Below are positions 675-49,164 of a stretch of DNA of 64,000 nt, in pieces. Each line of letters starts with the position of its first letter. Position 1 is the first letter of the stretch. The position numbers were made by a program, and so were the translations under genes. Source of the DNA: Ulota crispa (Eukaryota; Streptophyta; Bryopsida; Orthotrichales; Orthotrichaceae); NCBI GenBank assembly GCA_963920765.1, contig OY987249.1, forward strand, positions 188,501-252,500, in the 5' to 3' direction. The notes under the pieces were generated by a model. It had not been told where the DNA came from. It did not search any database and worked only from the letters and a program-made list of their open reading frames with translations.

Positions 675-1611
675 TTAACCCTGAAAGGACCAAGTGGTTG
701 TCCAACAACCACTTGAGAACTCAGGTAGGGTCATATGGAGTTAATTTTTACTAGATGTTCTCAAAATTGTTAAACAAGGTGCAAATATGTTTCCCCCAAG
801 TGAAAATCTAATTATTTCTCCAATTGGGTGTCTGGTTCAAAATTATGTTGCCCAAAAGAAATTGGGCAATTTGGGCAATTTGAGCATCTTTGGAGAATCT
901 TATGCTAAAACTCTCATCAACTTTTGAAATTTGGCAAGTATATAACTAAAAAAACATGGTGTAAAATTGTCAAAAAAAATAGAGCTCGCACATCACATTT
1001 TGAAGGGAGTCAAACTTTGTTAACTATGTTTGGGCAGTTTCAGAAAAAAAACTCCTCTAACTTCAAGCCCTATTATCTTTCAATTTATAAATCCAAAGTT
1101 CTTGAAGCTTTTTTTCACATATTCCAAATGTTTATCTCCAACATTTTACTGTTTAGATTTCAAATAAAAGACTTCCACATTGCACAAGAAATCATGAAAA
1201 AATGATTAATGAGTTGCCAATTCACTAAACCTCCTTACATTGGAGGGTGATTTAGAATAAGCTAAATTCTATATTTGCATCTGAAAATTTTCATGACTTG
1301 TGAATGGTCAAAAAGCTCAAATTTGTGTATCTAGAGTAATAAATTTATTCTAGGAAGGCTCAAAGTCTATTGATCTTGTTTTGCAAGAATGAAAAAAAGT
1401 TGTTTTTCCCACTTCAAACGTTATAATTTTACAATCAGCGCAATCAAATGGGCTGAATTTTTTTGCACATGTTGATTCATTGGTTTTGCAAATTTTTGTA
1501 TGGTTGGAATTGAGGAAAAATGTTTTAATTTTTAATTTTGGGCAATGTCCTAAAAGTTGGCAGTTTCTGAGATTTTTTCTCAAAAAACACCCTTGGTCCT
1601 TTAGGGGTTAA
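675..1611. mobile_element. TTAA-bounded piggyBac-like element A (937 bp)
   Basis: Left end TTAA-CCCTGAAAGGACCAAG; right end is its inverse, CTTGGTCCTTTAGGGG-TTAA. A second, inverted copy lies at 13181-13948 (shared internal segments such as the CCAAATTTCAAAAGTTGATG match). No coding capacity. Confidence 0.8.
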
Positions 1612-3185
1612 GGTTTCAATAAACAATAGAAGCTTGAAATATTTAGGAACTATTTAAAAATAAGTGAAAAGGATGCAAATCTATGAGGCTATGGAGTAGA
1701 TTATAGCCAAAATCCTACTTGGAAAACAAAGGTGAGAGGCAGGCCATGTTTTTATGCCATTTTGGCAAATTCAGCAACATTAGTGTGAAAGGATCTTGCA
1801 TTCTTCAAAGTCTCACACTAATTAAAACATCTTGTGGAATTTTTGGTTAAAAGTCCAAAGTTCAAAATGCAATAAAAATGTAAATAGTAAAATTGGTAGA
1901 GAAACCTTGTAAGCTTTATTTCATACAATGGCACATGTACAAAAGAATAAATCAATCTTGGCTAAAGTCAAATTTGGAGTAAAGAAGGACAATAATCCTA
2001 CCTACAATCAAAGAGCATCTTTTAGGATTGGCATTTTTGGCAACTTTGCTTCTAACTATATTAACAAAATATTCTACTAGAAAGGAAATTCCCACCACTA
2101 CCATACCTTACTAGCAGCTTTGGCAAAAATTAAATTTTGAAATATTTGCCTATTTTTTTTTATAATTATGAACACTCATTGCCTAAAATTTGGAAAATGA
2201 TTTTTAAATAGTGCTATATATATATATATATATACAAAAAGGTGTCAAAATATGAATCAAAACACTACCAAATAAGTTTTGTAATTACATTGAGTTACAC
2301 ATAGATCACAATATAAAATTTGATCTCAAAGTTCTAAAATCAAGCAACACACATGCTTCCAACTCATTTTTGTCAACTTCTCTAAATGATCATTGTAGAA
2401 TTATTTGCGGGATAATTTTTGTTTTACTAAGACACAACCTCACACAAAAAACATAACTTTCATACAAAAATACTAGCAAAAGTTAGTTTATAAATACAAT
2501 AAGCATGAAGGCAACATGAGAAATTAGCAACTACCATTTTTTTCATGAATGCCATCTTATTAATGAATACTAAAATGAAGATCGTCTCAAATTGTTGATC
2601 ATATTAATTAGATAAAATAGCTAACTACCTCATTTATAATATTTGACTTCAATAAATGCTTAAATATTGTTAGTTTTTTTTAAAAGTGACTAATTTTTTT
2701 AAACTAATTTTTGAGTTGCCTAACCATGTTTTCACACTTTAATTAATTATTTGGCACTTGACTGCCGAACCTGCTACTAAGGTATGGTACTAGGTTCAAA
2801 CACATACAAAAAAACACTTAGAAAAATAAAAAACAACGTCCCAATTCTTCATCAATTTTTTGATCTATAACCTCTATGTGGATCCACAAAACTTTCAAGA
2901 TTAAACAAGACCAAATACTAAAACAATTCCACATGAATGGAAGCATGAATGACGAATGACTAACTATAGTATTGATAGCTTCAACAAGCAAAAATAAACC
3001 CCATGTCCACTATTATATAGAAAATTGGTATTCTAGATTGAAAAACAATCCATGAATTCTTTGTGCAAAATGCCATCCAATTTGTTGACAAGTACGTCTA
3101 CAAGGGAAATTGTCCAAAATGACAAAAATATGTTCAAATCAACATAGCTAGATTTACATAAATTGTCCAATTTGATAGTCTTTTT
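1612..3185. other. AT-rich intergenic DNA
   Basis: Only a TA microsatellite is recognisable; no gene. Confidence 0.45.
2215..2234. repeat. (TA)10 microsatellite
   Basis: Uninterrupted TA dinucleotides in AT-rich intergenic DNA. Confidence 0.95.
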
Positions 3186-3359
3186 CACTAGTAGAAATCT
3201 GCCAAAAAATCGCGTTTCGTTTAACAAAAAATCTGAAGTTGATTGTGTTGCAGTTTCCGTTTTCAACATAATTTTGCATTGGAAACAGATAACTCAACAC
3301 AATCAACTTCACATTTTTTGTTAAGTGGAACGTGGTTTTTTGGCAATTTTCTTCTAGTG
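3186..3359. mobile_element. CACTA-type mini-element (174 bp)
   Basis: Begins CACTAGTAGAAATCTGCC and ends with the inverse GGCAATTTTCTTCTAGTG. The arms pair for about 65 bp. Flanks are TTT/TTT, the 3-bp duplication expected of CACTA (En/Spm) elements. Confidence 0.8.
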
Positions 3360-3568
3360 TTTTGTCATTTTGGACACATTTAGTCAATTTGGACATGTCA
3401 ATTAGGACACGATTTCTTTTAGTGTACCTTGCCAAAAGACTCTAAAATAATATCATACATTTGTGCAAAACAAGAACGTACGCACTAAAGAGAAGCACCC
3501 TTATTTAGAGAAGGACATATTTTTTGGAAGTGCCAGATTTTAGTTGTCCACAATGTATTAGGTGCTAG

Positions 3569-3880
3569 TGTCCGGTTCATACTAGCAAGCGGCCAAGGCA
3601 TAGAAATCGGCACCCTATCTGGTGTTTTGCCTGATAGAAACTTTTTGTGTAATCATGTGCCATCCAAGAGTGTGTCTTTGCCGGACAGGTTTGGTACCAC
3701 TCTTGGAGCAAGCCCCAAAACTTCACAATTTTGGCCACTGACATGTCTATATAGATTGGTGAAGATGGATGTATAAGTACTAGACAAACCCTCAATTTGA
3801 ACCTTGCGGCGGGCAAAAGCCAAATTTCAACCAATCATAGTTGAGAAATTTTTGACCGGTCGCTAGTATGAACTAGGCTT
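3569..3880. mobile_element. Tourist-like repeat, copy 1
   Basis: First of three adjacent copies. Conserved core includes TTTGGTACCACTCTTGGAGC. Ends GGTTCATACTAGC / GCTAGTATGAACTAGGC are inverted. Confidence 0.65.
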
Positions 3881-4193
3881 AAGGCTCAGATTAGATTATC
3901 AACAGGAAAAAGTAGCAAAATAAGCAACCGTGATGATGGTTCGTCTGACGGAAATATTTTCTTGTAATCCTGCATCATCCAAAAGTGTGCCTCTGCCGAA
4001 CAAGTTTGGTACCACCCTTGGAGCAGGCCCCAAAATTTCACTATCTTGGCCGTTGACGTGGCTATATTGCTCGGTGAAAATGGATGTAAAAGTACCAGAC
4101 AAACCCTCAGTCTGAACCCTGCAATGGAGGAAAGCCAAATTTCAACCCATCTTGCTTGAGAAATTATTGGCCGGTTAGTTTGAACTGGGCCTT
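3881..4193. mobile_element. Tourist-like repeat, copy 2
   Basis: Same core as copy 1. Right end GTTAGTTTGAACTGGGCC abuts copy 3 across a single CTTAAG. Confidence 0.65.
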
Positions 4194-4632: not shown

Positions 4633-4966
4633 TGTAGGGACCAACCCACATGTCTAACTGGTTTCCTTTCGCCAGAAAAAAAATGCCTCAATTCAGAGGA
4701 CTGGAAGGAGTTTATGAAGTGAGAAGGGTCCAGTTTCACATTCTTTATGTCATCGGAGTCCGGCCAATACGGCCTTGCACATGGGCCATGCTGAGGGCTC
4801 CGTGCGGTCCCTCACGGGCCAGGGCGGGCCCCCACCCATCAGCCCTTGAAAATCTCGGAGCAGGTTCAAGTGGACTTCGGGGTGGGTAAAACTTACCCCC
4901 CCTTCTTTACTACGTTTTTTGTGTGTACGATGCTCTCCCGTATATTTTTGTCATTTTTTTTGTAGC
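4633..4966. other. GC-rich intergenic patch
   Basis: 4740-4890 is GC-rich (CCTCACGGGCCAGGGCGGGC), and similar wording occurs at 8270-8400. It may be a remnant of an unidentified repeat. No gene seen. Confidence 0.4.
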
Positions 4967-5206
4967 TTAACCCCTAAAGAATCAAGCTAATACAATACAA
5001 AATATGTTTGCTGTTGTATGATTGACATTTTCTATTAAGATTTTTTTAAATTTGTGATCTTGACTACCTCACTAGAACAACATTGATCTATATTTTAATT
5101 TCTTTGTTGATCTCAAATGTAGTAAAGGTGTGGATGCACTCCAAATACAAGAAAATTCCCCAACTTGTATTGGTCACAAAGGGCTGCTCAATTGTTCAAG
5201 GGTTAA
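4967..5206. mobile_element. TTAA-bounded element C (240 bp)
   Basis: TTAA-CCCCTAAAGAATCAAG at left, GTTCAAGGG-TTAA at right. Internal sequence matches element L at 45466-45699 (GTTGATCTCAAATGTAGTA shared). Its right TTAA is also the left TTAA of element D. Confidence 0.8.
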
Positions 5207-5853
5207 CCCCTAAATGCCCAAGGCCAGTTTGAGCTTCTCAGAATTTTCATGGAACTGAACATTCAACCAACATTTTCATAAATTTTGTCAAGTCTTTTTC
5301 AATTGTAACCGTAAAAATTGAAACTAAACATGTCAGAGAGTACATAAAAAATGAAAATACAACAACATCACTTATTGTTTGAAAGATTATAATGTTTAAA
5401 CATGAGGGTGTTAAAATTGCAAAAGTGACTTGAAGTTTTCAATTCCATATTTCATATGTCATATCTAAAAAGTCGGTCACCAAAAAATACAAGGTTTAAG
5501 GTCATTACATGTTTAAGTTCAATCAATTTACACTTTCAAAATCTACTCCTATATTTTTCTTAAATACATTTCTAATGTGGATTTTCCTCCAAGCTCTAGT
5601 GTGTTTGAGGCTCATTTTTAAGATCTTCCAACACTAGAAAACTCAAGATTGTAATGGACACCCTTGTACAAAAGCTTGAGTAGAAAAATCATCAAATTTC
5701 ATTTTCAAAGTTAGATTTTTGACGTTAGAAATAGACTTCAAAACAAACTTGTCTTGGAAAAAAACTACTATAAATAGTGCTTGGATAAGGTTTTATACAT
5801 CTTCAAAGTTTTGTAAACACCTAGATTGGGTGCCTTGGGCATGTTGGAGTTAA
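5203..5853. mobile_element. TTAA-bounded element D (651 bp)
   Basis: Left end TTAA-CCCCTAAATGCCCAAGG. The degraded right end contains GCCTTGGGCATGTTGGAG-TTAA. Inverted relatives lie at 7624-8172 and 14610-15260. Confidence 0.7.
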
Positions 5854-6234
5854 AGAACTTTGCATTGTACGGAGTATCACTAGTATTTTGTTGATTTGAA
5901 CCTTACATGTTGGATAATTATGCAATCCTAATCAAGCATTCCAATTTTCAATTCTTCAAAACCAAAACCCTATTTTTGGTGGGTTATTTTGTATTGAATT
6001 CATGGTTCTACATGATAGTTGATTGAAAAATATTGGGGATGAATTTTTGAGATATGATTGCATGAGTATGTAGGGAACGTCCATATGCACATCTTCTATG
6101 CTAAAAAAAACCCCCTTAAGTAACAAAAATTTGATGTAGGAATATTTCAATGAAGCCTTTGATATGCCCAAATTTTGTAAAATAGATATCTTTATTTTTT
6201 AACTAGATTTTCACCAAGGAAACGTAACATCTTA
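5854..6234. other. AT-rich spacer between TTAA elements D and F
   Basis: No gene. It may be an unrecognised piece of an older element. Confidence 0.4.
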
Positions 6235-7006
6235 TTAACCCCTGAGCGCCTAGCGACCAGATTCTGGTCGCTCCAGATTTTAAAGCCTTATTTTTAGGCA
6301 CTAGATCTAATTTTTTGGTCTTGCTATAAACTACAATTATGAAAGCATTCAAGTTGTCCATGTTAATAGAGTAATGGCAAGGAAAGCCAAATTGTTGTAT
6401 AAGCTCTATAAGAGATTTGATTTGGTGAAACACAATACGGGGCAATAGGAGCGGTTTAGCAAGCAACGTTTTACATGCTGCAATTGGTCAATACCCCATG
6501 CAAGCTTCCTTGTGTAAGCTTTGTTGTAGCAAGAAAGTTGTTGGCAAGGGTTCAAGCATGTTCTAAACCCTTATTATGGCAACTTTCACCAACTGTGCCG
6601 GTCATTATTTTCCGTGCATTATCAATTTGAAGCCCTAAAACTTAACATAAGAAGAAGTGCAATTTTCAATAATTAACAAGTGTGTGCATTCACATCTGAT
6701 CTTGCTACTCACAAAATTTGAGATGAATCTGGGGCTTATAGAATTTTGTAAAATTCATCAAATAGCAACTTTCTACCAAAAAATGAGATTTTGTCATCAC
6801 ATGTTGTTTGATCAAATGTTATAATCTCTCATCTCCCGTTGTGAATTGTTCCCAAAATTTGCAAGCCATTTTCTAAGTAGGTGTTCTACTATTTTCAATG
6901 GTCATTTTTTGTGGATCATCCGATTGACCAAGATACAATGCATCAAAGTTGTTGGTCTCCAAAAACCCTAATTTTGGTGGATATGGCTTGGGCACTTAGG
7001 GGTTAA
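6235..7006. mobile_element. TTAA-bounded element F (772 bp)
   Basis: TTAA-CCCCTGAGCGCCTAGC at left, GGCTTGGGCACTTAGGGG-TTAA at right. The left end continues into a short hairpin (GCGACCAGATTCTGGTCGC). Confidence 0.8.
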
Positions 7007-7623
7007 AAGGTACAAACTTAGTCACAATGTAGGAATCCAATAGCAAATTTTGATTTTCTCAAAGAAATTTCTATTTTTGAACTACAAAGAAAAGTGACAA
7101 AAATGGACAATTTATATAAAATTCAGAATTTGAATTACTTTGATCCAAAATGGTGAAAATCAAGGAATCTTAGCCTACTAAAATTTAGGAAAAAAAACAG
7201 TCAAATAAAATATACACTTAGAGCTCAAAATAGCAAAGCGACAAATTTTACAAGGGAGAAACAGAATGGAGGTTTGGGAGTTCCATACCTATCCACAACT
7301 AAAACTTCTCACTCATCAATAAGAATCAAATAATTCAAAGATTCCCACATATATATAGATCTAAAAACCAATTTTAGATTTTTTTTTTTAAATGATAATT
7401 TTAAAGAATGTTTGGGCTATAGGCCCTTCCTTGTTTTCTGAAAATTTATACATAAAAATTTAATAAATGTTGGAATGAAGAAAAAAATAGAAGCCCATGC
7501 AAATCTTTGAATTCCCCATGTTTTATGATAGTTTCAAAAAATCATACAAAGTAGTTTAGCTGTAAATACATGTCAAAAACCCAAATTGTCCTTTAAAGAT
7601 GCATTTGGGCCTTTAGGGGTTAA
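7007..7623. mobile_element. Partial TTAA element H (right part)
   Basis: The right terminus GGGCCTTTAGGGG-TTAA is clear. The interior resembles the right halves of elements N and O (46603-49164). No left terminus is visible, so the left border is approximate. Confidence 0.55.
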
Positions 7624-8172
7624 CTATTCTTTTTGAAGTCTAGTTTTAGCATCAAAAAATCAATTTTGTAAATGATTGATTATGATTTTTCTATTCAAGA
7701 TTTTGTGCAAAGATGTCCATTGCAATATTGACTTTTTTAGAGTTGAGAGCTATTAGAAATGAGCCTCAAATACAATAGACTTTGGAGAAAAAATTACACT
7801 AGAAATTCATTAAAATAATTGTAGAGGAGATTTTGAAAAGTTATAAATTGATTGGAGTTAGATGTATGCTATGTCTTTTAACCCCATTTTTTTCATGTGA
7901 ATATTTTCTTAGATTTGATATGTGAAAAGAGGATTGAAAGACCTCAAGTCATTTTCACATTTTTAACACCCTCTTGATCAAACATTATAATCTTTTGATT
8001 CATAAATGATATTGTTGTGTTTTCTTTTCCTATGTGATCTCTAACATATGTAGTTTGATTTTGTACAATTCATATGTAAAAAAACTAATACAACTTATCA
8101 ATTTTGGCTTTTTGTTCAACTTAAAACAAATTCTTAGAAGCTCAAAAAGTGCCTTGAGTATTTAGGTTTTAA
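7624..8172. mobile_element. TTAA element I (inverted relative of D)
   Basis: Internal sequence is the inverse of element D. The right end AGTGCCTTGAGTATTTAGG is followed by TTTTAA. The left end is missing, cut by the TTAA of element H. Confidence 0.55.
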
Positions 8173-8637
8173 CTAAAAAAGAAATAAAAAAACTAACAAA
8201 AACAATAAACAAACTAACTAAGCAGTAAAAGAAAACTAACTAAAGAGTAAAAATGAGCCCCAACGAGCCCGTAAGGGTTGGCCCTCACGGGGAAGGCAAA
8301 GGAAACCAGTTTGGGCTGCCCTGCCCTCACCCGACCTTCCCGGCCCTCATATGAGGGTCCACACAAGCCCGTGAGGGCTCATGTGCAAAGCCCTCAAGCC
8401 ATCTCCACCCATCTGCCAGCTCGCGGCTTGAGCGCCGGGTTGGTGGGGCGGGGGAGATCGACAAGCCCACCTAGCGCCGGCATTGCTAGGCCGGAAGTGC
8501 GGAAGGCAAGTTGACGAAGTTTGAAGTTGACATAAGGGGACTGAAAAGAGAAGAATGCTGGGTTGATGCACCAATCTTGTTCTGCCATGTATTGATTGAA
8601 ACACAATGTAAAAATTTGTGCTGACAAGAATCTACAC
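8173..8637. other. Transition into the ACP GC-rich island
   Basis: 8173-8250 is A-rich. 8253-8480 is GC-rich with inverted words such as CCCTCACGGG / CCCGTGAGGG. It could be the ACP promoter or a small repeat. No exon identified. Confidence 0.35.
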
Positions 8638-8837
8638 NNNNNNNNNNNNNNNNNNNNNNNNNNNNNNNNNNNNNNNNNNNNNNNNNNNNNNNNNNNNNNN
8701 NNNNNNNNNNNNNNNNNNNNNNNNNNNNNNNNNNNNNNNNNNNNNNNNNNNNNNNNNNNNNNNNNNNNNNNNNNNNNNNNNNNNNNNNNNNNNNNNNNNN
8801 NNNNNNNNNNNNNNNNNNNNNNNNNNNNNNNNNNNNN
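8638..8837. other. Assembly gap, 200 N
   Basis: Exactly 200 N, which looks like a fixed-size placeholder, so the true distance is unknown. The gap removes the upstream part of the acyl carrier protein gene. Confidence 0.99.
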
Positions 8838-9039
8838 GTGTGACATCGCGAAGATCACGCCGGACGCCAAGTTCGTCGACCTGGGCGCAGACTCGCTGGA
8901 CACCGTGGAGATCATGATGGCTCTGGAGGAGAAGTTCAACATCCAATTGGACCAGGAGGCGGGCGAGAAGATCGTGACGGTGGGCAATGCCGCGGACCTC
9001 ATCCAGGACGTGATTTCGGAGACTGCCCCGTCCCAGTAA
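8838..9039 (+). CDS. Acyl carrier protein, plastid type, C-terminal exon (5' part lost in gap)
   Basis: Acyl carrier proteins carry the growing acyl chain of fatty acid synthesis on a 4'-phosphopantetheine arm; plant plastid forms act in the stroma. The 66 visible residues contain the prosthetic-group motif [18 protein letters not shown], where the Ser of DSLD is the attachment site. Helix III/IV follows (ITPDAKF upstream; [15 protein letters not shown] downstream), and the frame ends in TAA. The Ala before DSLD and the MMALEEKF run fit plastid rather than mitochondrial ACPs. The transit peptide and first helix should lie in the N gap or upstream of it. The short open stretch before the gap (8596-8637) is not recognisable as ACP. 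The exon is GC-rich against an AT-rich surround. The domain is confident; subcellular assignment is inferred from the motif alone. Confidence 0.92.
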
Positions 9040-10851
9040 GGGACGCGGGTCTCGCTCGCTCGCGCGTGGTTGCCTCGGTGGTTCCCCCTCCCACTCTCTT
9101 TGTCTGGCACTGCCCCGTCTTCGGGAGCGCAGGGTCTGCGGCTTCGTAGTAGCACGCAGCGTACGTGGCGGGCGTTTTGTTGAGCTTAGAGCGTGCGCTT
9201 AGAAAGAATGAGATTATTTTCCGTGGCACCCGGGCAGTGTTGGGTGCGTACCGGCGGTCGGGCTGCTGGATTGCGGCGCCTTCTTCTGCCTCTGCTCGAC
9301 CATGTATTTCATACGATTTTTTAAAGAAAAATAGCGTTGGACCCTGGCCCAACGAGTGGTTCACGAAACGTGGCGGTGGCGCCCTGGCGTGGCCTGGGCG
9401 CGTGTGGTGTGGTGTGGTGCGCGTGTGGAAAGTGGGATTGGGAGGGTCTGGTGTGTGGCGTGAGCTCTGTGGTCGGAATGCAATGCAGTGGAATGGATTG
9501 GAATGGAATGCAATGCAATGCGGGTGGGAGGTGTTGTGGGCTTGGGCTGTGGAGGGGAGTGCGGCAGGCGAGGTGGACGGTCATGGGGGAGTGGCGTGGG
9601 TGGTTGTGAGTGTGGCAGGCCTGGGTGGTGGGGCGAGCGCACAGACAGGATTGGCGAAGGGCTGGGGGTTGCGCCCCTCGAGGTACGGGGAGCGGGGGTT
9701 CTGCACTGTGAAGGCAGTGTGCGATTTGCTGCGGACAGGTGAGGGGGGTGCGAGCAGCAGCGGAAGAGGCTCAGCGCTCAGAGCGGCGGTGGCAACTCGG
9801 AGCGGGAGCTTTGAGAGGCACTTGTATGTTCAGTGCAGAGATTTAGGGTTCCAACGTCTCCAGGTGCGTCTTGACTCCAGTATCTATGATCGTGATGAAA
9901 TATTGAGCTGATGTAGTTGAATTTGGCAATTCAGGATGAGGACTTGATACTAACAGTTGTCTGTCGCTTGATTACTCCATTCAATATCAACCTCGTATTA
10001 CTGAGTTGGAGCTGAGAACTGCAGAATTATTTTATTGCCAATATCCGAATTGATGATAAACCCAATCGAGGCTCGATTGTGTGCACTATGACTTCGTGTT
10101 TTTTTACACGGCTGACCAATTTTTTAGATTGAGTGGCTTATAGGGATTGTTGAATTTTGGAAGTTCTTTGTGACAAGGTGGTTAGCATGTTGGTTTATTA
10201 TACAGAAATCAGCCTCATCATGTAGATTTTGGTTTTAAATTGCTGTGTATAAAAGTGCGGTGGCAGATGGCTCATTTGCATCAGGTTGCTCTGGCCAGAA
10301 CCTTTTTGTATTCAATCCCTCTCTTTGGGGCCAGAGGGAGGATCATTGTGTCTGATTCTCCACTACGTGATAGTCGGTGCGTTTGTGCAAGTTTTTTTGA
10401 ATCATAACCCCCAAATATCTGACGCATCCCCTTATTTGAATTTTTTAAAAGGTGTTTCAGATTTAGCCAATTTAGGAGAAAATGTGGATGTGTTTTTGAA
10501 CAAATCTTGTAGGTTTCGATTTGGTAAGGATATGATTTCTGGCGTATGACCAATACTTGTAAGTAAAATTTGTTACCCTGTTTCTAAAGAGGTTTTGTAG
10601 ATTTTCTTACGATCAAAGCGATTGTCAGTTTTACAGGAAAATTAGTTGCAGTGGACTTGTTATTATAAACCTTTGGGTTTACTTGGTTTTGGGGTATTTT
10701 GAGATTTTTTTTGTGCAGCTTAGTTCTTGATGCCACTGTTTGCTATGTGAAAGATGGGCTTTTGACTTTGACATATTTTCAATATACAATGTGTTAAAGA
10801 TAGTATTCTTGGTGGACGTTAATAAGATGTGGTCTTGGGAATTTGCGCCAT
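9040..10851. other. ACP 3' flank: GC-rich then AT-rich intergenic DNA
   Basis: 9040-9850 stays GC-rich and low in complexity (runs of GTGTG near 9405, GGAATGGAATGCAATG-type repeats at 9475-9520). It probably holds the ACP 3' UTR. A 248-codon open frame crosses it but looks like a by-product of base composition. Beyond 9900 the sequence becomes AT-rich and I see no gene. Confidence 0.6.
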
Positions 10852-10947
10852 TAGGGGGCTTCAAACATAAAATTTGATCTACGAGTTTCTCACCTCATAG
10901 GGTCTCAGCTCATTACTGAATTATTTATGTTCACTCGCATGCCAAAA

Positions 10948-11100
10948 GGCTGAGACAATCGTGAGGCTGAGACAATCGTGAGGCTGAGACAATCGTGAGG
11001 CTGAGACAATCGTGAGGCTGAGACAATCGTGAGGCTGAGACAATCGTGAGGCTGAGACAATCGTGAGGCTGAGACAATCGTGAGGCTGAGACAATCGTGA
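10948..11100. repeat. 17-bp tandem array, nine identical units
   Basis: The unit GGCTGAGACAATCGTGA is repeated nine times without any difference, plus a 5-base partial. The related element Q2 has one diverged copy. Confidence 0.97.
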
Positions 11101-11165
11101 GGCTGTCTGTGAATCATTTTAGGAGTGAATTTCAGAGGTGATTCACTTTATTGTTCTCTAGTAAA

Positions 11166-12503: not shown

Positions 12504-12513
12504 TTTCTTTAAA

Positions 12514-12923
12514 GGGAATTGATATGTGCACCACACCCTTTCAACTACTGTACCACACTCTGAGGTAAATTTTAGATTTCTACCATAAAAAGTTAAATTT
12601 GAGAATTTGGAATTCAAATTTGGACTTAGAGACCATGATCTAGTCTAGAACCATAAAAAAGGTTGTAATTCAACAACATCCAATGAAAAAGTTTAACTAG
12701 GAAGAAAAATGTTACTTTTACTTTTGTTTGTAAAAAAAGATAAACTTTTTCATTGGGTGTTGTTGAATTGCAACTTTTTTTGTGGTTCTAAACTAAATCT
12801 TGATCTTGAAGTCCAAATTTGAATTCCAAATTCTTGTATTCAGCTTTTTGATGGTAGAAATCTAAAATTTACCTTCGGCTGTGATATAGTAGTTGAGAGG
12901 GTGTGGTACACATATCAATTCCC
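12514..12923. mobile_element. Fold-back Mutator-type MITE (410 bp)
   Basis: Two arms of about 180 bp pair almost completely (GGGAATTGATATGTGCACCA at left, its inverse at right). The 10-bp direct repeat TTTCTTTAAA flanks both sides (12504-12513 and 12924-12933), the size typical of Mutator-like elements. Confidence 0.88.
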
Positions 12924-12933
12924 TTTCTTTAAA

Positions 12934-13180: not shown

Positions 13181-13948
13181 TTAACCCCTGAAGGACCAAT
13201 GGTGTTTTTTGAGAAAAAACCTCAGAAACTGTTTACTTTTAGGGTATTGCTCAAAATTGAAAAAAAAAATTTTCTTTCTCAATCTCAACGTTACAAAAGT
13301 GTGTAATAGATAAATTAATATGTGGAAAAAAATTCAGCCCATTTGATAGCTCAGATTGTAAGAACATAACGTTTGAAGTGAGAAAAACAACTTTTTTTCA
13401 TTCCTGCAAAACAAGGTCAGTTGACTTTAAGCCTTCCTAGAGTAAAATTTTTGCTTTACAAAAAAAGAGTTTTTTGACCATTCACAAGTTTATGATGGTA
13501 GGTTCACTTGTGAAATTTTTTAGATGCAAATACAGATTCTAGCTTATTCTAAATCACCTTGCAATGCAAGGAGGTTAAGTGAATTGCCCAAACATAGTTA
13601 ATAAAGTTTGACTCCTCTTAGGATGTGGTGTGAGAGCTTAGTTTTTTTTTTTTTTTTGAGAATTATACACGATGTTTGTTTAGTTACATACTTGCCAAAT
13701 TTCAAAAGTTGATGAAGATTTTTAGAATAAAATTCTCTTAAGATGTCCAAATTGCTCAAGCTACCCAATTTCCTTTGGGCAACATAACTTTTGAACTGCG
13801 CATTTGCTTGGGGAAAAATTTACATTTCCACTTGGGAAATACATATTTGCACCTTGTGTAACAATTTTAAGAACATCCAATAAAACTATTGACTCCACAT
13901 GACCCTACATGAGTTGTCAAGTGGTTGTTGAATAGACACTTGGGTTAA
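13181..13948. mobile_element. TTAA-bounded element B (inverted copy of A)
   Basis: Left end TTAA-CCCCTGAAGGACCAATG. The right end, CACTTGGG-TTAA, has lost several bases relative to element A. Confidence 0.75.
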
Positions 13949-14609: not shown

Positions 14610-15260
14610 ATAACCCCTAAATGCCTAAGCGACCAGATCTGGATCTTTACAAAACTTTGAAGATGAATAAAACCTTATCAAATCATTATTTTCAGTATTT
14701 TTTTTCAAAATAAGTTTGTTTTGAAGTCTATTTTCAACATCAAAAATCTAATTTTGACAATGAAAGTTGATGATTTTTCTACTCAATATTTTGTACAAGG
14801 GTGTCCACTGCAATCTTGAGTTTTCTAGTGTACGAAGATCTTGAAAATGAGCCTTAAATACACTAGAGCTTGGAGAAAAATCCACATTAGAAATTCATTT
14901 AAAAAAATGTAGGAGTAGATTTTAAAAACTGTGAATTGATTAGAGTAAGACATGTAATGACCTTAAAACTCATATTTTTTTAGTGACCAACTTTTCAGAT
15001 TTGACATGTGAAATGAGGATTAGAAAGCTTTAAGTCACTTTTGGACTTTTAACACCCTCATGTTCAAACATTATAATCTTTCAAACTATAAGTGATATTG
15101 ATGTGTTTTCTTTTTCCATGTAATCTCTAACATGTTTAGTTTAAATTTGTACGGTTACAATTGAAAAAAACTTGATGGAATTTATGAAAAGGTTGATTGA
15201 TTGTCCAATTTCATGAAAAGTCCAAGAAGCCCAGATAGGGCTTGGGCTTTTAGGGAATAA
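14610..15260. mobile_element. Element G with ATAA on both sides (651 bp)
   Basis: ATAA-CCCCTAAATGCCTAAG at left, GGGCTTTTAGGGA-ATAA at right. The interior is related to D and I. Both flanks read ATAA in the same orientation, as expected of a target duplication rather than part of the inverted repeat. Confidence 0.65.
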
Positions 15261-26723: not shown

Positions 26724-29522
26724 ATGTATCAAAACAAGAAGTTTTCTACAACCAGCTTAATGCCCCAGAGGTCTGCAAGTCAGGCACCAGAGCCGCGAGG
26801 GTCAAGTGCACCAGGAGCCTCCACCAATTCCGCTGGCAGCCCGGGTGGGGGCTCTGGAGGTGCTGGCTCTGCAGCAAAGCAGCGATTACGTTGGACACCT
26901 GAGCTCCATGACCGCTTTGTGGATGCCGTCACTCAGTTGGGCGGTCCTGAACGTAAGCTCCAGCTTACTCTTCCTGTTTGCAATAGGTTGGCTAGATTTG
27001 GATTTTAGGCGGGGAGGCAAATCGGTGTCCTGGCAATGTTTGAATTATGCTAGAATATTCGTCTTGGCAGTTGACTATAGGCCGAATTCCTTTGAAGTGT
27101 GGTCCTGTACAGTTCTACAGTACCTGGAGTTATTGACATGGTTATTGTGCTATACCACCTGCTCCGTCCATGCTTGTTCACTTGTTGTGCCAGTAGAGTG
27201 ATATGAGACCCTTACTTAAGGAAGTAATGAGGTAGCTTATCGCTGTGACACATTGTCTCTGAACTTGAAGTCCCTCTAGAATTATGTAACCTTTACAACC
27301 TGTCACAAGTATAGTTGCAGTTCGTTGTCTAGGCACTTTATAGACCGGAAGGCAAGGCATCTAGAAGGATAGTACATTAGTATATTCCACCTGGTGTCAT
27401 CCATATGCTAGTTTTAGAAAACGTAACATATTTTTTGCATGCCTGGCGGAACGAGCCGTCACATTCTGGGATGCTTCACATCGAATCTGACGATGCTTCT
27501 GCTAGTATCTGAACAAATATGGTGAATCCCATGACAGGTGCTACTCCGAAAGGGGTTTTAAGGGTCATGGGTGTCCAAGGTCTTACAATTTATCATGTGA
27601 AGAGTCACTTACAGGTAACCAACTGTTTTATCTTACGCTTTTCATCTGCGTCTGGATTTTTCAAAATTTTCAGTGCATTCATGTGGGTGTGTTTCACTGC
27701 GATAATATGTGAGTTTCATTGATAAGCTAGAAGCCGTCGTGGTTAACCAAACTGAACTAGTACTTATATGAGTCCTTGTGAATTGTTGGTATCCTATGAT
27801 TACTAGTGATGTGGAATCTGCTGATGTGTTCATCCCTGCCTGCAGAAGTACCGTCTAGCAAAGTATATTCCAGAGTCGTTGTCAGATGGTGAGTCACCTT
27901 CCTCAGAGGCCATTGTAGGATGTTACAAGTACAGCTGTTTATCGTGTTTATCGTTTGTACAGTACTCTATGAGTGTGAACGAAGTGTTTACTGGAATAAT
28001 GTGCTGATATGAAGGCAAAAAAGCACCTTCTAGTGTTGGGGTATTTTTTTGAATCTGGATGGCAGGTAGTGCATTATATTTTAAATTGACCATGAGTGGA
28101 AAAACTAATTCTTCAAAACTGGTCTTCATGAATCTAAACAATGAGCTTCTTGTGATTGTGTACAGGGGGAAAGTCAGATAAGAAAAAAAATCCAGCAGAC
28201 ATACTTCCAACTTTGGATGCAACCTCGTAAGTTCTTGTCCGCCTTCTTTCTGTGTGGTGTTTATATGTCCAACAACCAGGATGTTGTGCAATATCCCTAT
28301 ATTATATTCTGTCTAGATGGACAACTCATGAACTTCTCTGCTATTTTAGGGGTATTCAAATCACGGAAGCTTTGCGCATGCAGATGGAAGTGCAGAAGCG
28401 ACTGCATGAGCAGCTTGAGGTTTGTTTATGACCTCCTTCTCTAGTATTATCTATCCACAGTTGCAGTAGAATGTGCTGTCAATGTGTAGTCAGCTGATGT
28501 TCAAGGGCATGAAATGGGGTCGATGGTTTAGATAGGCATGACCCATGAATTACACTGATGATGTTAATTCCTTGCAATAGGTGCAACGTCATCTACAGCT
28601 ACGGATTGAAGCTCAGGGGAAGTATTTACAAAAGATCATCGAAGAGCAGCAAAGATTTGGCGCTCTCAATAATCGGCAAGGTACTACTGAGACGGGGACG
28701 CCTACTGCTACTACTATAACAGAGGTGACCCAAGAACAGCCTGGTGCAGTCGTCGATATTAAGCCTAAACCGCTCTTGACGTCCGTTTCAACAGCTGAAG
28801 CTCCTCCTTCCAACAATGTTGCAACAGTGCCTGTGTCTGCAAGTATTCTAGGACTTGCTCAAACGGCCATCGTTCCTTCTCAACAGCAGCCTTCACAGCC
28901 CTCGTATGCATATGACTCGTTCACGAACCCACCTTTGACTGAAGGCTCGCCCGACCAAGGTGCTCCCAAACGGACCCGAATAGAAGATGGAGCAGGCCAT
29001 CCTCAGACAGGGCAATTAGAGACTCAGCAAGTCCCAAGAGCTTCGCAACCTGGGGGACCATTCATGCAACCTGGATCTGCCCAAGGAACTAGTGGTGGAG
29101 CTTTCCACTCTCCTCAATCCGAATTTGGAGCAGGGGCCACGTTTTCTCCTCGTCAGAGTGAAGGATCTTTCTCTCAAGCCCCGCTGAGTCAGCAAACTTA
29201 TTCACAACAACCTCTTCAGGGAGTCTTTCTTCCCCAGCCTTACTTACCAGCAAGCAATGCAAGCACTCTGCCTGCACAGGTGCAAGGATCCGTAGCGCAA
29301 GCCCCGTCAGATAGTTGCACATCTGGGAGTGCACGCCAACCTGGAGAAGTCTCAGGCGAACTGGATACAGGAGCTTTCCTCACCAACGAGAGAGAAACCA
29401 CTTTGCCAGCATCTGGTGGCGATCGAGGTGATAGAGGTGCTGCAGCCGTGCCTCAAGCAGGCATGTATGAACAATGGGAACACGCTGGCAGTGGTGGCCA
29501 ATTGTTTAATGAGGATGGTTGA
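26724..29522 (+). CDS. MYB-CC (GARP, PHR/PHL-like) transcription factor
   Basis: A nuclear DNA-binding regulator of the PHR1/PHL family, several members of which control phosphate-starvation responses; this copy's own role is not shown by sequence. Exons: 26724-26952, 27538-27614, 27846-27888, 28166-28226, 28350-28419 and 28581-29522. All have GT-AG borders and matching phases, giving 473 residues. The N terminus MYQNKKFSTTSLMPQ is followed by a Gly/Ser/Ala spacer. The GARP MYB repeat starts at KQRLRWTPELHDRFVDAVTQ, continues through ATPKGVLRVMGVQGLTIYHV and ends at KSHLQKYRLAKYIP. The coiled coil is QMEVQKRLHEQLEVQRHLQL followed by RIEAQGKYLQKIIEEQQRF. The last ~270 residues are Gln/Pro/Ser-rich and read as a flexible, possibly activating tail. 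The start was chosen because ATG follows the splice-like site and matches family N termini. The SHLQKYRLAKY form points to the PHL7/PHL8/UNE16-like branch (inferred). It looks fully intact. Confidence 0.95.
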
Positions 29523-35287: not shown

Positions 35288-35851
35288 TTAACCCCTAAGT
35301 GCCCAAGGGTGTTCTTCTCGGTTTTGAAAGGCAATTTTGTAGTTTTTGAATTGTCCTTGTAAGATCATTATTAAATATCAAAACAAAATTGTAACCGTAG
35401 AAACTTGAACTTCAAGGTTTCTAGTTGGCACTATCCAAAAAGAATCCAAAATGGCCATGCAGATTTTAAGGTATTTGTGATTGAATATTGATGAGTATAG
35501 AAATTTTCGCTTTTATTGGAGCTGCTCAAAACTTCTAATGCAAATTGGTAACTTTTGGAAGCAAAATTGGAAAACAACCACTTAAGATGCATTATTATTT
35601 ATTGTTGTTACTTGAAAACTAATGACCCCCTTTTCAAAACCATGACCAGAGTTTCACAAATGAGCCTGCAACTCAAAGGTTAGAGCGCAACCACCTAATA
35701 CAAAGAATTTTCAAAATTGAGCACTAGAAGCTAACTTTAGCCTACAATTTCTCCATAAAAACCTTAAAACACTCAAGTATTTGCCTTCAATAGGGTTTCA
35801 AAGTTTCTTGAAATTTTTGAACACCAAAATTTGGTGCCTTGGGCATGTTAA
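35288..35851. mobile_element. TTAA-bounded element E (564 bp)
   Basis: Left TTAA-CCCCTAAGTGCCCAAGG. The right end TTTGGTGCCTTGGGCATG-TTAA matches the decayed right end of D. Confidence 0.7.
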
Positions 35852-36593
35852 AGCATTATTTGCATGAATCACTATTAAACAAGTAAAGTTGATGCTAAAA
35901 ACAATCAAACAACAAAAAAATGGGCACTTTTGTTGGATATGATGATTCCAAATAATCCAAAAGCTTGTCCCCTAGTGGTGTAGCTAGTGAGGGTTTTAAT
36001 CATGTTTCAAAGAAAGATGATGAATATAATGTATAACGTTATTTCTGGTAGACTACCACTCACGTATCAAGAACAATGTTAATTTTTGAAATACCTTCAA
36101 ATGAATATTACACAAGATGTATTGGTATCAGTAAGTGCTAAGATTCTTTTATACTATTTTAAGTGAATTTGTTTAGTTACTGTAAAGGCATGCTAGGTAT
36201 CATGGTTTCAAAAAGAGTTTTGGCCACAACCTTTTGTGCTATTTATAAAAGCAATTTGGAGGCATCATCTCCTTAACATGCTTTCACACACTCAAGTTGA
36301 GGTGTCTACTTGCAAAATATATTTTAAAATTTAGCCACTTGAGTCACAATATTTGAGATAGTATTAGTATATCATAACCCACAAATATTGAATTTGCATA
36401 TAACAACTTCCAACTTACAGTAAACCATCTTATTAGTGCATAATGCAAATTCATATATTTCTTGAATTAGTGCAAGCTAGTAATATCAACTTTTGGCATT
36501 AACTTTTGGCATAGTAATTGAATTGGCTTCTAAAGTTTACCACACTCAATTATTGAAGCATCATTGTCATGTGACTAATGGTCTAATTTACTA
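35852..36593. other. AT-rich intergenic DNA
   Basis: No gene or definable repeat seen. Confidence 0.45.
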
Positions 36594-36981
36594 CTCCCTC
36601 TGTCCCTCTAAGAACATCCAAAAAGCTTCCTTGCAAAAGATTAACTATATTTTTAGTCTTTGTGCTAGTGACACATGCATTGTAGAAGCAATTTACCATC
36701 TACCACATGTATGCAAAATCTTCAATTTTGATGTCACCATTTGGGCACCCAAATTCCATGCAAAAGTACCATATTCTTGTTATTGATGATTTAAAGATTA
36801 GTAGCAACAATGGTACCTCAAATGGGCAAGGTTAAGCTTGCTAGGAGAGGAATGCTCCGTAACTGCTTAACTTGTCCTCGTGAGATCATTGAACATGACA
36901 AACGCTTTCTCAGCGTAAGGGAGCATTTTAGTGGTACAAGAAATGTGTCTGATTTGGACGTTTTTAGAGGGACAGAGGGAG
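36594..36981. mobile_element. Stowaway-like MITE (388 bp)
   Basis: TA-CTCCCTCTGTCCCTCTAA at left, TTAGAGGGACAGAGGGAG-TA at right, the Stowaway signature. The interior is shared with 52504-53239. Confidence 0.85.
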
Positions 36982-37618
36982 TATCCATTAAGCTTAGTCT
37001 TGAGCTAGAAATAACAAGTAAACAGAGGAGTACTGCAACAAACCCTAATACTACGCTTTTCTCTAGCTTCATTTGAACCAAGGTGTACTTCGAGTGCTTA
37101 AAGGAAGAGATATTGAGTGGCTACCTGTAAGAATGGGCACTAGACTCCAGGTCTAAAAATTTAAAGCAAAAAATTAGCCACTCAATAAGTTTCAATGTTA
37201 TCGGATTCCAAATCTCCCAATCAATTCTGAGAACAAGAAGAATAACAAATAAATAAATAAATAAATTCCACAACAAAATAGGTGTCGACGTAGCAATTCA
37301 TTTGAACTGCTCTTCAATAAGAAGAATGCATGGCAATTATCCGGATGTGGTACTTAGTTCCATTCTACAACCCCACCCAAATAAGTCCTGCAAAGTTTCA
37401 TCCCAAACCCTTGGGACCTCATTCCTAAGATCACGCAATGACCATATGACCAACTCTATTGGGCATTATACAAGGCGCTGGCAGACGTGGCTATGGATAG
37501 TGATGCTTCGTCTAGGATCACAATAGGATTTTGAGCTTTGCTGAGAAGCAATAATATTAACCAGGGGCACCAATTTACAGATCAAAAGAGAGAGATTCTG
37601 GAAAACAAAGAGTCACAT
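36982..37618. other. Region 3' of the methyltransferase
   Basis: Unremarkable DNA, probably including the methyltransferase 3' UTR at its right side. Holds an AAAT microsatellite at 37246-37265. No gene seen. Confidence 0.45.
37246..37265. repeat. (AAAT)5 microsatellite
   Basis: Five tandem AAAT units downstream of the methyltransferase gene. Confidence 0.9.
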
Positions 37619-44323: not shown

Positions 44324-44574
44324 ATTTAACCCCAGAACGCCCAACCCAAATTCTTGTAGTGTTGAACATCATTGCAAATAATTTGGCACCACAAGTTCAA
44401 AAACAACATTTGGAATAGTTAGCCAATGATATTGCAAGAAGCTTAGGGTCCGCATATGTATGAAAAATTTGGTAAGCTTTAGTTGCAAGAATTAAAAAAT
44501 TATAATGGTCAAAGACAACAAACTGTCAAATATGGAGAGGCCATATTCTGACATGTGGGGCGCTCAGGGGTTAA
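44324..44574. mobile_element. TTAA-bounded element J (251 bp)
   Basis: TTAA-CCCCAGAACGCCCAACC at left, GTGGGGCGCTCAGGGG-TTAA at right. Both ends are well preserved. Confidence 0.8.
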
Positions 44575-45465: not shown

Positions 45466-45699
45466 TTAACCCTTAAACAACCATAGGGAATAGTATATAC
45501 GTTGACATATAATTGTCATTTGCTATCAATAAGAAATTTTAATTTGAGATCTGAAGTAGCTCACTAGAACCACATTGATCTATTCTCCATCTTCTTTGTT
45601 GATCTCAAATGTAGTAGAGGTGTGGATCCATTCCAAATACAAGAAAAATACCCCGTATTGTACTGGTCGCAAAGGGCCTTTCGGTCGTTTAAGGGTTAA
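45466..45699. mobile_element. TTAA-bounded element L (234 bp)
   Basis: TTAA-CCCTTAAACAACC at left, GGTCGTTTAAGGG-TTAA at right. Close relative of C. The right TTAA is shared with element M. Confidence 0.82.
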
Positions 45700-45917
45700 C
45701 CTCTGAACAGCATGAAAGCCCTTTTGCCGCTGTATGTGCAAATGTATTTGAGATGCTCTGAGGGCTTTCCAAATTTTTTTAATGCACCCACCATCAAACA
45801 ACCCTTCAATATGTATGGTTGTAACACTTAATTTCCAACTAATTCAAACTTCTGAATATTGATTGTGACCGTATTTGATACCAAATCTCCAGAGCCCAAG
45901 GGCCCTTCAGGGGTTAA
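45696..45917. mobile_element. TTAA-bounded element M (222 bp)
   Basis: TTAA-CCTCTGAACAGCATG at left, AAGGGCCCTTCAGGGG-TTAA at right. The inverted repeats are imperfect beyond the first 9 bases. Confidence 0.65.
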
Positions 45918-46602
45918 GCAAATCCATTGCAACACAAAACTTGGATATAGGATAATAAGACTGCTAATGTACGGTATTGCAGATGGAGGAATGAACTCAT
46001 CCTTCAAGGAAAAATAGATTGCCCTCATTGAGAGATTTTGCGAAATCAATGCTTACTTAGTAATTGGATATGTAGTAGTTAGGGCATCCCCAATCCAGCC
46101 GCAACCAGGCATGGAAAATGCCTTTACCAAGAGTTAATCTAGCTTAACTAAAAATCAGGGCTCCAATGCAGCAGGTATTTGTAACTGCATTTTTCAAGCC
46201 TCCCTACATAAAAGCTCCTCTCTTGCATATTTGGTCATTTTGGAGAGTCCTGCATATCACTCTAGCTTTGACTCTGAAGCAATTTCAGGCAATTTCAGAT
46301 ATTTCTGACATGAATCTCCTCACATAAGCACTTACAAAAGACATAAATTATTAAAAAATTGTGGTTAGTGAGTGTCATAACTTGCTTGCATTGGGGGTTG
46401 TTGGACTGGGAAATGCCCCTGCTTTGTATCTGACCCTAAGTTAGACATGGTTAGACATAGTTTTTGGAGCTCCTTTCTCAATTGGATTGGAGATGCCCTT
46501 ACTATATGATCAATCTTGATGGCTGCATTGGTAGCACCAAGGTAAGTACTTGTTGCCATGATCACTTGCAGTAAAGTCTAAAAATTAGGTTTAAGATTTG
46601 GT
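45918..46602. other. AT-rich intergenic DNA between TTAA elements M and N
   Basis: No gene. GGGCATCCCCAATCCAGCC near 46083 and TTGGATTGGAGATGCCCTT near 46480 are roughly inverted and may bound another decayed MITE of about 420 bp. Confidence 0.45.
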
Positions 46603-47520
46603 TTAACCCTTATAGGACCAAGCTCAGTTTTCACCAAAAACTCTCAAAAACTGCCTTTTTTAAAGCATCAACCAAATCTGTAAACAAAAACTTTTTTAAG
46701 GATATGTAACTATAGGATCTTGTAGTGCAATGGTTTTAGAAGAAGCAAGAAAATTTCAGAAGTTTTCACCAAGTGGATTGGAAGATACAACGATTTAAAA
46801 ACTTTTTTGGGTCATGTGGAAAATTGGGTAGCTACCTTCAAAAGGTCAAATTCTTAAGGGGAAGAGGCCATGTTGGCAGTGCTTCTCTATATTCCATATT
46901 TCACCTAAGTAGGATGCATGCTTAAAAAGTTTCGAATCATTTGAAATTGTACAACACATGGAAAAAAAATAGGACAAAAAAAAAGTAGAGAATGATTAAA
47001 AACATTAAATTGTTAAAAATTTAGTTATGGAAATTTAAAAAATCAACCCCATTGGTTGTAATGTTGTAAGTAACAATTTCTATCCTTTGGTCTTACATAT
47101 TTTCAATAATATTAAAAATTGAGTAAAATAAGGGACTTCAAAGTTTATTTTAGAGTAGAGAATCCAAAATTGCTCGCAAACAAAAACTCCTCATAATTTT
47201 CATCTCATCAATCCAAATGGAATTATTCAAAGATTTCCACATATGCATAAATCTCTTGAACCAATTTCAAATTTTTGTTTCTAAACTAGTTATTTTTAAA
47301 AAACTACCCAAGCTGTCCACCGAGCAAAAAAATCAACATATTAGGCTATAACTCTTTGCTCACAATTCCAAACGTCATGAAAGTTAGTGCAAATAAATAG
47401 ATATTCCTTACCCCCACATTCTATTAGACTTTCAATCTAAAGTATGAAATCTCCAATCACATGTACTTACCCAAAATTCCTACGTTGTCAAAAAAGGAAG
47501 CTTGGTGCTTTAGGGGTTAA
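46603..47520. mobile_element. TTAA-bounded element N (918 bp)
   Basis: TTAA-CCCTTATAGGACCAAG at left, CTTGGTGCTTTAGGGG-TTAA at right. The right TTAA is shared with element O, whose interior it resembles. Confidence 0.82.
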
Positions 47521-49164
47521 CCCTTAAAGCACTAAGCTCAATTTTTCACCAAAACTACTCCTAAATTGCCATTTCTAGTACAAGTACCAAATTTTAGAAG
47601 AAAAAAAAAAATCTGACAAATATAGCCATAAGATCTTATATTACACTAGTATCCAAAGCTGTGAAAAAAAAATCAGGAGTTTTTCCCATGTAGATTGTTA
47701 GATATTTGAGTTTGAGTTGACAAAAAGTCATTTTTGTCTCTGCAAATATCTGGGCAATTGCACTTCACAAGGTCATATTTGTATGAAGAAATTTCCAATT
47801 TGGTTGTAATTTTTTGGACTTGTCCTTCAAAGCAAGTTAGGTACTCACCAGCAGTAATAAATGTGGCTAAATTTAGCAAAAACTCCATCTCAAATTTGGT
47901 TGCGCTAAAATTATATTGTAACAACAAAGAGGAAAATTTTAAAAGTTATGTAGCCAAAGTTTCAAGATGCAAAATTGCCTTTGAGCTAAGGTGCATTTTG
48001 ACGTGCTGCCCTATCACTGATGAGACCTTGGATTAAGACAATTTGAGTAGCCATTAATCATATTTGATTTCTCCCCACCTAGCTATAATGCAAAGTGTAA
48101 ATGCCCTATTCATTCACCTACCCTCCCTCAAATGGCTGCTTGTAGTTATTGTGTCATGGCAAAGTTTGGCGATTGTAAGAATGTACTAGTTAGTCATTTA
48201 GCAACTTCTTGACAAATTTTTTGATTAGTGTACACTTTGCAAATGTCCAAGTTTAGCATTATAACTAACAAAATAAAACAACAATTGAAGATTGATGTTA
48301 GACATCACCAATTCACATAAGTGAAGAATATTTGAACTAAACTTAAAGGTTGCCATTTATAACCTAATAAGCTGCCACGCATGTAGCTAAAAGTTCTTAG
48401 GCAAGAAAAAAACTTGTAGACAAAATACTAAACTAAACAAGAAAGTATTGCAACTTGCATACTACTAAAATTCAAAGTAGGTTGCAAAAAATTCAACCTA
48501 CAACCCACGTCTTTAGCAGGTAAAGATAAACCAAAAATGAAAATAATAGCCTTGGTACTCACTTGAAAATTTTCAAATCATTTAGAATTGTAAACACATG
48601 GAAAACAAATAATAAATAAAAAGGTGTAGAGAATGATTCAAACCACTAAATTGTTAAGAATTTAATTATGGAAATGAAAATTTTCAATCCCAATGGTTAT
48701 AATGTGGTGATAAACAATCTACATCTTTTGATTTTGTATCTTTTCTAAAATATTAAAAATTGAGTAAATTAATGGACTTCAAAGTTTATTTTAGAGTAGA
48801 GAATCCATAACTACCAACAAACTACATATCCTCATAATTTTCATCTCATTGATCAAAATGGAATGATTCCAAAGTTTCCCAAGTATATATAAATCTAAAG
48901 AACCAATTTAAAATAACACTATTCAAAAAATGTAATTATAAAAAAAGTTTTTTGGTTGCCCACATAGCAAAGAAAACTATACATTATGCAATAAATTTTG
49001 AACCATGAAGTCAAAATTTATGAAAACTATTGGGCCTTAAAGCTACTCCTTGAACACATCATATGTGAAAATTTCAAAAAAAATAAATGAGAGTACCATT
49101 GGTAGTGAGCTGCCCATAATTGCTATGTTGCCAAAAAAAGTATGTTTAGTGCTTTAGGGGTTAA
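47517..49164. mobile_element. TTAA-bounded element O (1648 bp, longest copy)
   Basis: TTAA-CCCTTAAAGCACTAAG at left, TTTAGTGCTTTAGGGG-TTAA at right. It shares the right half with N but carries roughly 700 bp that N lacks. It is the only copy long enough to hide transposase debris; I recognise none. Confidence 0.82.

What the first reader, a model, noticed from the sequence alone, without database searches (positions are those of the whole stretch)
675..49164. A large family of TTAA-bounded, piggyBac-like elements in a plant genome
At least 14 elements (about 9 kb of the window) share termini TTAA-CCC(C/T)T(A/G)A... and the exact inverse ...GGGG-TTAA. A TTAA target followed by CCC-starting inverted repeats is the hallmark of piggyBac, a superfamily that, as far as I know, is rare or absent in land plants. 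At least six sequence subgroups (for example A/B, C/L, D/G/I, F, J, N/O) point to long activity. No transposase is visible, so an unknown or distant enzyme may drive them.
Basis: partly seen in the sequence, partly recalled or inferred. Interest (0 to 1): 0.78.

Follow-up and report, generated by a model that had tools for sequence, protein, structure and literature searches.

The report
Native piggyBac transposons in a moss
This stretch of what looks like a moss chromosome is littered with small, defective copies of piggyBac, a cut-and-paste jumping gene best known from animals, and the same genome holds over a hundred mostly decayed piggyBac transposase copies, some in full-length elements whose ends match one of the small copies here.

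Summary
TTAA-anchored termini occur 18 times in the window against 0.8 in shuffles; TTAACCCCTRAR occurs 38,555 times in the 275 Mb genome against 171 for the reversed pattern. The enzyme is not unknown: the genome has 120 scored DDE_Tnp_1_7 matches, several with the catalytic aspartates of piggyBac, and 5.0-7.5 kb transposase-bearing elements with TTAA-CCC ends. Window element J (35288-35851) is an internal-deletion derivative of one of them: 425 bp of its 3' end (83%, no gaps) plus about 130 bp of its 5' end. The target is TTAA: joined flanks of one copy align to 40 paralogues, 38 with exactly four bases at the site, 13 of them TTAA (top-ranked matches, so uninterrupted ones were favoured). 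Shared-TTAA junctions number 562; random TTAA choice predicts 438-563, untargeted insertion 2.7. The host is a land plant, most likely a moss (partly recalled). Known superfamily, unexpected host, large scale; present activity not testable.

The parts
675..1611 (+). Element A, non-autonomous piggyBac element (937 bp), TTAA at both ends
   Evidence: 39 other copies at 84-88% among the 40 scored of 1788 candidates
13181..13948 (-). Element B, shorter member of family A (768 bp); its 13948 end has lost part of the inverted repeat
   Evidence: 79-81% to A in inverse orientation
4967..5206 (+). Element C, 240 bp; shares the TTAA 5203-5206 with D
5203..5853 (+). Element D, 651 bp; its right end resembles the 5' end of the L012 transposase-bearing element (15/20 in bases 21-40)
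   Evidence: a D-type query has 2997 candidates, 40 scored
6235..7006 (+). Element E, 772 bp, TTAA-CCCCTRA at both ends
7003..7623 (+). Element H, right end intact, left end decayed or truncated; left boundary uncertain
   Evidence: 7098-7623 in part homologous to elements in L017 and L009
7620..8172 (-). Element G, decayed D-family copy
   Evidence: 73% to D, 82% to L009 8802-9354
14611..15255 (-). Element I, D-family copy with decayed TTAA ends
   Evidence: 85% to D
35288..35851 (-). Element J, 564 bp internal-deletion derivative of the L012/L022/L027 transposase-bearing piggyBac
   Evidence: 425 bp of 3' end at 83%, 0 gaps; 5' end alignment score 77 against a maximum of 35 in 200 shuffles
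44326..44574 (+). Element K, 249 bp
45466..45699 (+). Element L, 234 bp, same family as C (80%); shares TTAA 45696-45699 with M
45696..45917 (+). Element M, 222 bp
   Evidence: 80% to L021 1093-1324
46603..47520 (+). Element N, 918 bp; shares TTAA 47517-47520 with O
47517..49164 (+). Element O, 1648 bp

Best explanation
The window elements are non-autonomous (MITE-like) members of the piggyBac superfamily in a land-plant genome, most likely a moss. Shown: related transposase-bearing elements of 5.0-7.5 kb elsewhere in the same genome carry the same kind of TTAA-CCC ends; at least one window element (J) is such an element with its middle deleted; the target is TTAA. Inferred from the known mechanism of piggyBac (recalled): transposase made by intact relatives binds the CCC(C/T)TRA terminal repeats in trans, cuts the element out through a hairpin intermediate and inserts it at a TTAA, so that the four bases flank it on both sides. 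Repeated waves of small derivatives of several autonomous lineages gave about 19,000 or more copies. They filled TTAA sites without strong preference, including the TTAA at the edges of older copies, which gives the end-to-end trains seen around 4967-8172, 45466-45917 and 46603-49164.
For: PF13843: 120 scored matches, best E 1.3e-73, 0 of 14 control genomes. Catalytic Asp positions align with T. ni transposase 6x67 and piggyBat 9c0f and recur in L012, L019, L024 and L027. Transposase-bearing elements bounded by TTAA-CCC: L012 2290-8035 of its reverse complement and L009 1763-6789, both ends also bounded by homology to a second copy; L013 1967-7552 and L028 11-7505, paired by repeat similarity only. 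J has both ends of the L012-type element. Empty site: the A-type copy in L035 interrupts a D-type copy; joined flanks align to 40 of 40 scored paralogues, 38 with exactly four bases at the site, 13 TTAA. 562 shared-TTAA junctions, as expected for random TTAA choice. 9 of 12 family-A copies examined have TTAA at both ends; 3 have one end mutated or missing.
Against: Only J is tied to a transposase-bearing element at both ends. D is tied at one end and A weakly at one end; the other families' ends tested (C, E, H, K, L, M, N, O) share only the inverted repeat with the 11 ends I had. Only 20 transposase loci were read with flanks, and in 14 of them I did not pair both ends. Terminal repeats are dense in this genome, so the pairing of ends in L013 and L028 could be accidental. 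Most scored transposase matches carry stops (10 of 120 have none), and no complete intact gene was shown. L025 has Asn for the first Asp of the last motif; L028 has its Cys-rich motif in another frame. The commonest site in the paralogues is CAAA (15 of 40), not TTAA (13 of 40), and both window copies have CAAA; I read this as subfamily variation. The 40 are the best-scoring of 2,997 candidates, a ranking that favours uninterrupted copies.
Confidence: 0.95

Rival explanations
1. Some window families (those not tied to a transposase-bearing element, such as C/L, K, N/O) are moved by another TTAA-targeting superfamily such as Kolobok or Sola3 (TTAA targets recalled), and share the CCC ends by convergence.
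For: Bases 21-40 of these families' ends do not clearly match any of the 11 transposase-bearing ends tested (best 11/20; random 95th percentile 10, 99th 12). Transposases of those superfamilies were not searched for.
Against: Their first 20 bases match the piggyBac ends at 10-17 of 20 in the rows shown, and 38,555 copies of one strict terminus point to one recognition system. MITEs often keep little more than the terminal repeat (general knowledge).
Confidence: 0.04
2. The elements or the assembly are contamination from an animal, fungus or alga.
For: piggyBac is best known from animals.
Against: Transposase matches lie on all of the large contigs C1-C11; the window contig is 21 Mb and holds a MYB-CC exon, and the genome has LEAFY.
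Confidence: 0.01
3. The TTAA-CCC termini are chance or low-complexity matches.
For: The bare TTAACCC word is not rare in AT-rich DNA (8.6 expected per window).
Against: 18 against 0.8; 9,855 against 0; 38,555 against 171; full-length homologous copies.
Confidence: 0.001

Closest known systems
piggyBac (IFP2) of Trichoplusia ni and its transposase (PDB 6x67/6x68)
   Same: DDE_Tnp_1_7 domain, aligned catalytic aspartates, TTAA target, short inverted repeats starting CCC
   Different: Transposase-bearing copies here are 5.0-7.5 kb against 2472 bp (abstract of PMC10803768 in the listing); long, divergent upstream open frames; one copy (L028) with an apparent intron inside the catalytic domain
piggyBat of Myotis lucifugus (PDB 9c0f)
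   Same: Best-scoring of the 2 solved relatives of the L014 transposase, E 2.4e-25
   Different: Animal host; distant in sequence
CMITEs of corals (PMC2872659, passages read)
   Same: piggyBac-related MITEs with TTAA duplications and CC[C/T]T ends; arrays of elements
   Different: Coral host; that paper describes tandem arrays of full-sized CMITEs, whereas of the three trains here C|D and L|M join different families (N|O joins related ones), and their genome-wide number fits random TTAA choice

Membership tests
piggyBac superfamily | DDE_Tnp_1_7 (PF13843) transposase in elements sharing the ends | tested here: met
piggyBac superfamily | Catalytic Asp triad plus fourth Asp (D268, D346, D447, D450 of T. 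ni; the D346 number is recalled) | tested here: met
   Aligned with 6x67 for L014; L019. Of 7 further loci scanned by motif, all three motifs in L012, L024, L027 (L024 across two frames); two in L013 and L022; one in L009; none in L018. L025 has one Asp changed
piggyBac superfamily | TTAA target-site duplication | tested here: met
   Paralogous empty site, 38 of 40 with exactly four bases, 13 TTAA, 15 CAAA; 562 shared-TTAA junctions; TTAA on both sides in 9 of 12 A copies
piggyBac superfamily | Short inverted repeats starting CC[C/T]T (definition read in PMC2872659) | tested here: met
piggyBac superfamily | C-terminal Cys-rich zinc domain | tested here: inconclusive
   A Cys-rich motif 178-208 nt after the catalytic domain in 4 of 20 loci by a simple pattern (L018, L023, L026, L028); L026 has a stop just before it and 16 of 20 gave no match
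piggyBac superfamily | Seamless excision that restores TTAA, and present mobility | not testable with these tools
   Needs accessions or cell assays
Kolobok / Sola3 | TTAA target with their own transposase (recalled) | not tested
   No search for these transposases was made; the link of J to a PF13843 element makes them unnecessary for J

The most novel reading that the evidence does not exclude
A moss hosts a large endogenous piggyBac radiation: several deeply divergent autonomous lineages (5-7.5 kb, long lineage-specific N-terminal regions, at least one with an intron in the catalytic domain) and tens of thousands of MITEs making up several percent of the genome, with some lineages still mobile. 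It would be an overlooked major DNA-transposon group of land plants.
Probability: 0.4. Interest if true: 0.68.

Novelty: new member of a known kind. Interest (0 to 1): 0.55.

Why it matters
piggyBac is usually treated as an animal and protist superfamily (recalled), and a family this abundant could easily be filed as unknown in plant repeat annotation. If it is general in mosses it changes the taxonomic map of piggyBac, gives natural TTAA-marked insertion polymorphisms for moss populations, and is a source of plant-adapted piggyBac enzymes. T. ni piggyBac has been used in rice for marker removal and was said to be untested in Physcomitrella in 2017 (PMC5505980, passage read).

Tried and rejected
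Organism: the 18S rRNA search failed twice for machine reasons and was dropped. LEAFY was used instead: two adjacent exon matches, read as one gene, with Asp where flowering plants have His in KMR[H]YVHCY (flowering-plant sequence recalled). That a His at this kind of position separates LEAFY types was read in PMC4701952 (passages, which names AtLFY His308 and compares moss); that the moss residue is Asp, and the chromosome numbers of pleurocarpous mosses, are recalled. No species was named.

Upstream open frames (long ones of 330-540 aa) were compared as a possible second gene. They fall into several weakly related groups and look like fast-evolving N-terminal coding regions, so no second gene is claimed.

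Viral contigs were scanned for relatives of the transposase: 57 pattern matches, none confirmed.

Paper searches on piggyBac showed no endogenous moss family in the listings and passages I saw; one search listed 25 of 270 papers. The library lacks most subscription journals, and the main survey (Bouallegue 2017) is not held. The hits for 'piggybac' in the moss genome paper PMC10619864 are the word 'piggybacking'.

Rows set aside: one search printed 11 junction-spanning rows for 7 of 85 candidate pairs. Only L035 (5 rows) was used; I read the others (L038 and window pairs from 4967, 46603 and 47517) as self-overlap or homology between neighbouring elements. In one search the row D3_L035host was cut two bases out of register and is discounted.

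Structure prediction was not attempted, because its stated rule does not name loci cut by the genome search.
Full report
1. Observation. The window is G000:C8:188501-252500 of a 274.8 Mb genome in 157 contigs. TTAA-anchored termini scoring 10 or more of 16 against CCCCTAAAGGACCAAG number 18, against a mean of 0.8 in 50 shuffles. Fourteen elements of 222-1648 bp were placed. Subgroups A/B, C/L, D/G/I and N/O are confirmed by alignment. Some ends are decayed: I, G, the right end of B and the left end of H.

2. Genome scale. The 20-base pattern TTAACCCCTRARNGNCCNAG occurs 4,950 + 4,905 times, against 0 + 0 for the reversed pattern. TTAACCCCTRAR occurs 19,338 + 19,217 times, against 85 + 86. If every strict terminus were one of two intact ends, this is about 19,000 copies. 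In the window only 12 termini are strict of about 26 that I place, so the true number may be roughly double (inference). For family A, 40 of 1,788 candidates were scored; the 39 besides the window copy are 84-88% identical and each covers at least 927 of 937 bases. The D-type query has 2,997 candidates, of which the 40 scored are 91-94% identical. Both lists are the best-scoring part.

3. The transposase. PF13843 (DDE_Tnp_1_7) gives 120 matches from 116 scored of 528 candidates, best E 1.3e-73, and none in 14 control genomes. A translated copy (L014) matches piggyBat 9c0f (2.4e-25) and T. ni piggyBac 6x67 (6.4e-24) over the catalytic domain, with the catalytic aspartates aligned (the role of these residues is recalled). 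L019 has them too. Of 7 further loci scanned by motif, L012, L024 and L027 show all three motifs, L013 and L022 two, L009 one and L018 none. A Cys-rich motif follows at 178-208 nt in 4 of 20 loci by a simple pattern. Most scored copies are decayed: 10 of 120 matches lack stops, and L025 has lost an Asp.

4. Ends of the transposase-bearing elements. Of 20 loci read with flanks, I could draw both ends with similar repeats and TTAA for four: L012 (5,746 bp), L013 (5,586 bp), L009 (5,027 bp) and L028 (7,495 bp). For L012 and L009 homology to a second copy also begins and ends there. For L013 and L028 the pairing rests on the repeats alone. L022 has a mutated 3' TTAA and L018 (90% to L009 over 5 kb) a mutated 5' TTAA. 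In the other 14 loci I did not pair both ends. L009 has two further full-length relatives, at 90% (L018) and 88%. L028 has an apparent intron (GTAAGA...CTCCAG, 279 nt) between the first and second catalytic motifs, with an open frame on either side; no transcript was seen. Its Cys-rich motif lies in another frame, so that copy is frameshifted there or has a further intron.

5. The link. Window 35287-35711 matches the 3' ends of L012, L027 and L022 at 83, 82 and 78%, starting at or within 3 bases of the TTAA; against L012 it is 353 of 425 with no gaps. Its other end, at TTAA 35848-35851, aligns with the 5' region of L012 (score 77), L022 (74) and L027 (70), against a maximum of 35 in 200 shuffles tested against L012. 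The outermost CCCCTA of that end is lost. J is therefore a 564 bp internal-deletion derivative. D's right end matches L012's 5' end at 15 of 20 in bases 21-40, equal to the maximum of 5,000 random trials (99th percentile 12). A's right end reaches 11 of 20, which is weak, and the other ends tested show no clear excess beyond base 20.

6. Target. Flank joining over 85 candidate pairs gave one clean case of a known element inside another repeat: the A-type copy in L035 lies in a D-type copy. The joined flanks matched the 40 scored of 2,997 D-type candidates over 298 or more of 304 bases. Ranking favours uninterrupted copies, so 40 of 40 says little by itself; the exact four bases are the informative part. 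At the site 38 of 40 have exactly four bases and 2 have a one-base gap: 13 TTAA, 15 CAAA, 4 TAAA, 8 others including the two gapped. The two window copies have CAAA. Independently, 562 places read YTYAGGGGTTAACCCCTRAR, two elements sharing one TTAA. If insertion chooses among TTAA sites at random, 38,555 termini and one TTAA per 208 bp (density of the DNA held, not of the whole genome) predict 563; window TTAA density predicts 438; untargeted insertion predicts 2.7. This supports TTAA as the target, with no strong preference for or avoidance of older copies.

7. Age. Twelve family-A copies, the window copy and its 11 best matches, differ 4.2-7.0% from their majority sequence and 9.6% from each other on average. 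Choosing best matches biases this to young. Nothing here shows present mobility.

8. Host. The window has a MYB-CC exon (1 of 4 open frames tested had a Pfam match), and the genome has LEAFY with Asp in KMRDYVHCY, which I recall as the moss type. Contigs C1-C10 run from 41.4 to 15.8 Mb, with C11 above 5 Mb. I conclude moss at about 0.85.

9. Novelty. The mechanism and family are known. Plants appear in lists of piggyBac hosts (PMC8086355, passages), and PiggyBac is among seven MITE superfamilies named for angiosperms (PMC10004981, passages). My searches showed no described endogenous moss family, within an open-licence library. I rate it a new member of a known kind, of interest for host and scale.

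Noticed in passing
window 12504-12926 and 63338-63762, partial at 54052-54196 and 56033-56221: A roughly 420-bp palindromic repeat family (arms about 82% complementary, two full copies 85% alike; ends near GGGAATTGATATGTG); copies also sit about 1 kb from the 3' end inside the transposase-bearing copies L012 and L022.
   Followed up: partly
window 36588-36983 and 52496-53240: Repeats with ends like TACTCCCTCTGTCCC...AGAGGGAGTA, which look like Stowaway-type (Tc1/mariner) MITEs (name recalled).
   Followed up: no
L028 4641-4919 (G000:C1:1181140-1181418): An apparent 279-nt intron with GTAAGA donor and CTCCAG acceptor interrupts the catalytic domain of a piggyBac transposase; the translations of L014, L019 and L025 run through that point without it.
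   Followed up: partly
upstream of the transposase domain in L009, L012, L013, L014, L015, L019, L025, L027 and others: Open frames of 120-540 aa, some in weakly related groups: possible lineage-specific N-terminal regions of the transposase.
   Followed up: partly
window 28581-29522: Exon with a MYB-CC motif (PF14379, E 4.8e-9), probably a PHR1-like transcription factor gene.
   Followed up: no
window 10947-11105 and 61538-62506: A perfect 17-bp tandem repeat (9.4 copies) and a long degenerate 10/20/30-bp minisatellite.
   Followed up: no
window, within 8394-9198: 200 N in the window, at least mostly in one run here, probably an assembly gap.
   Followed up: no
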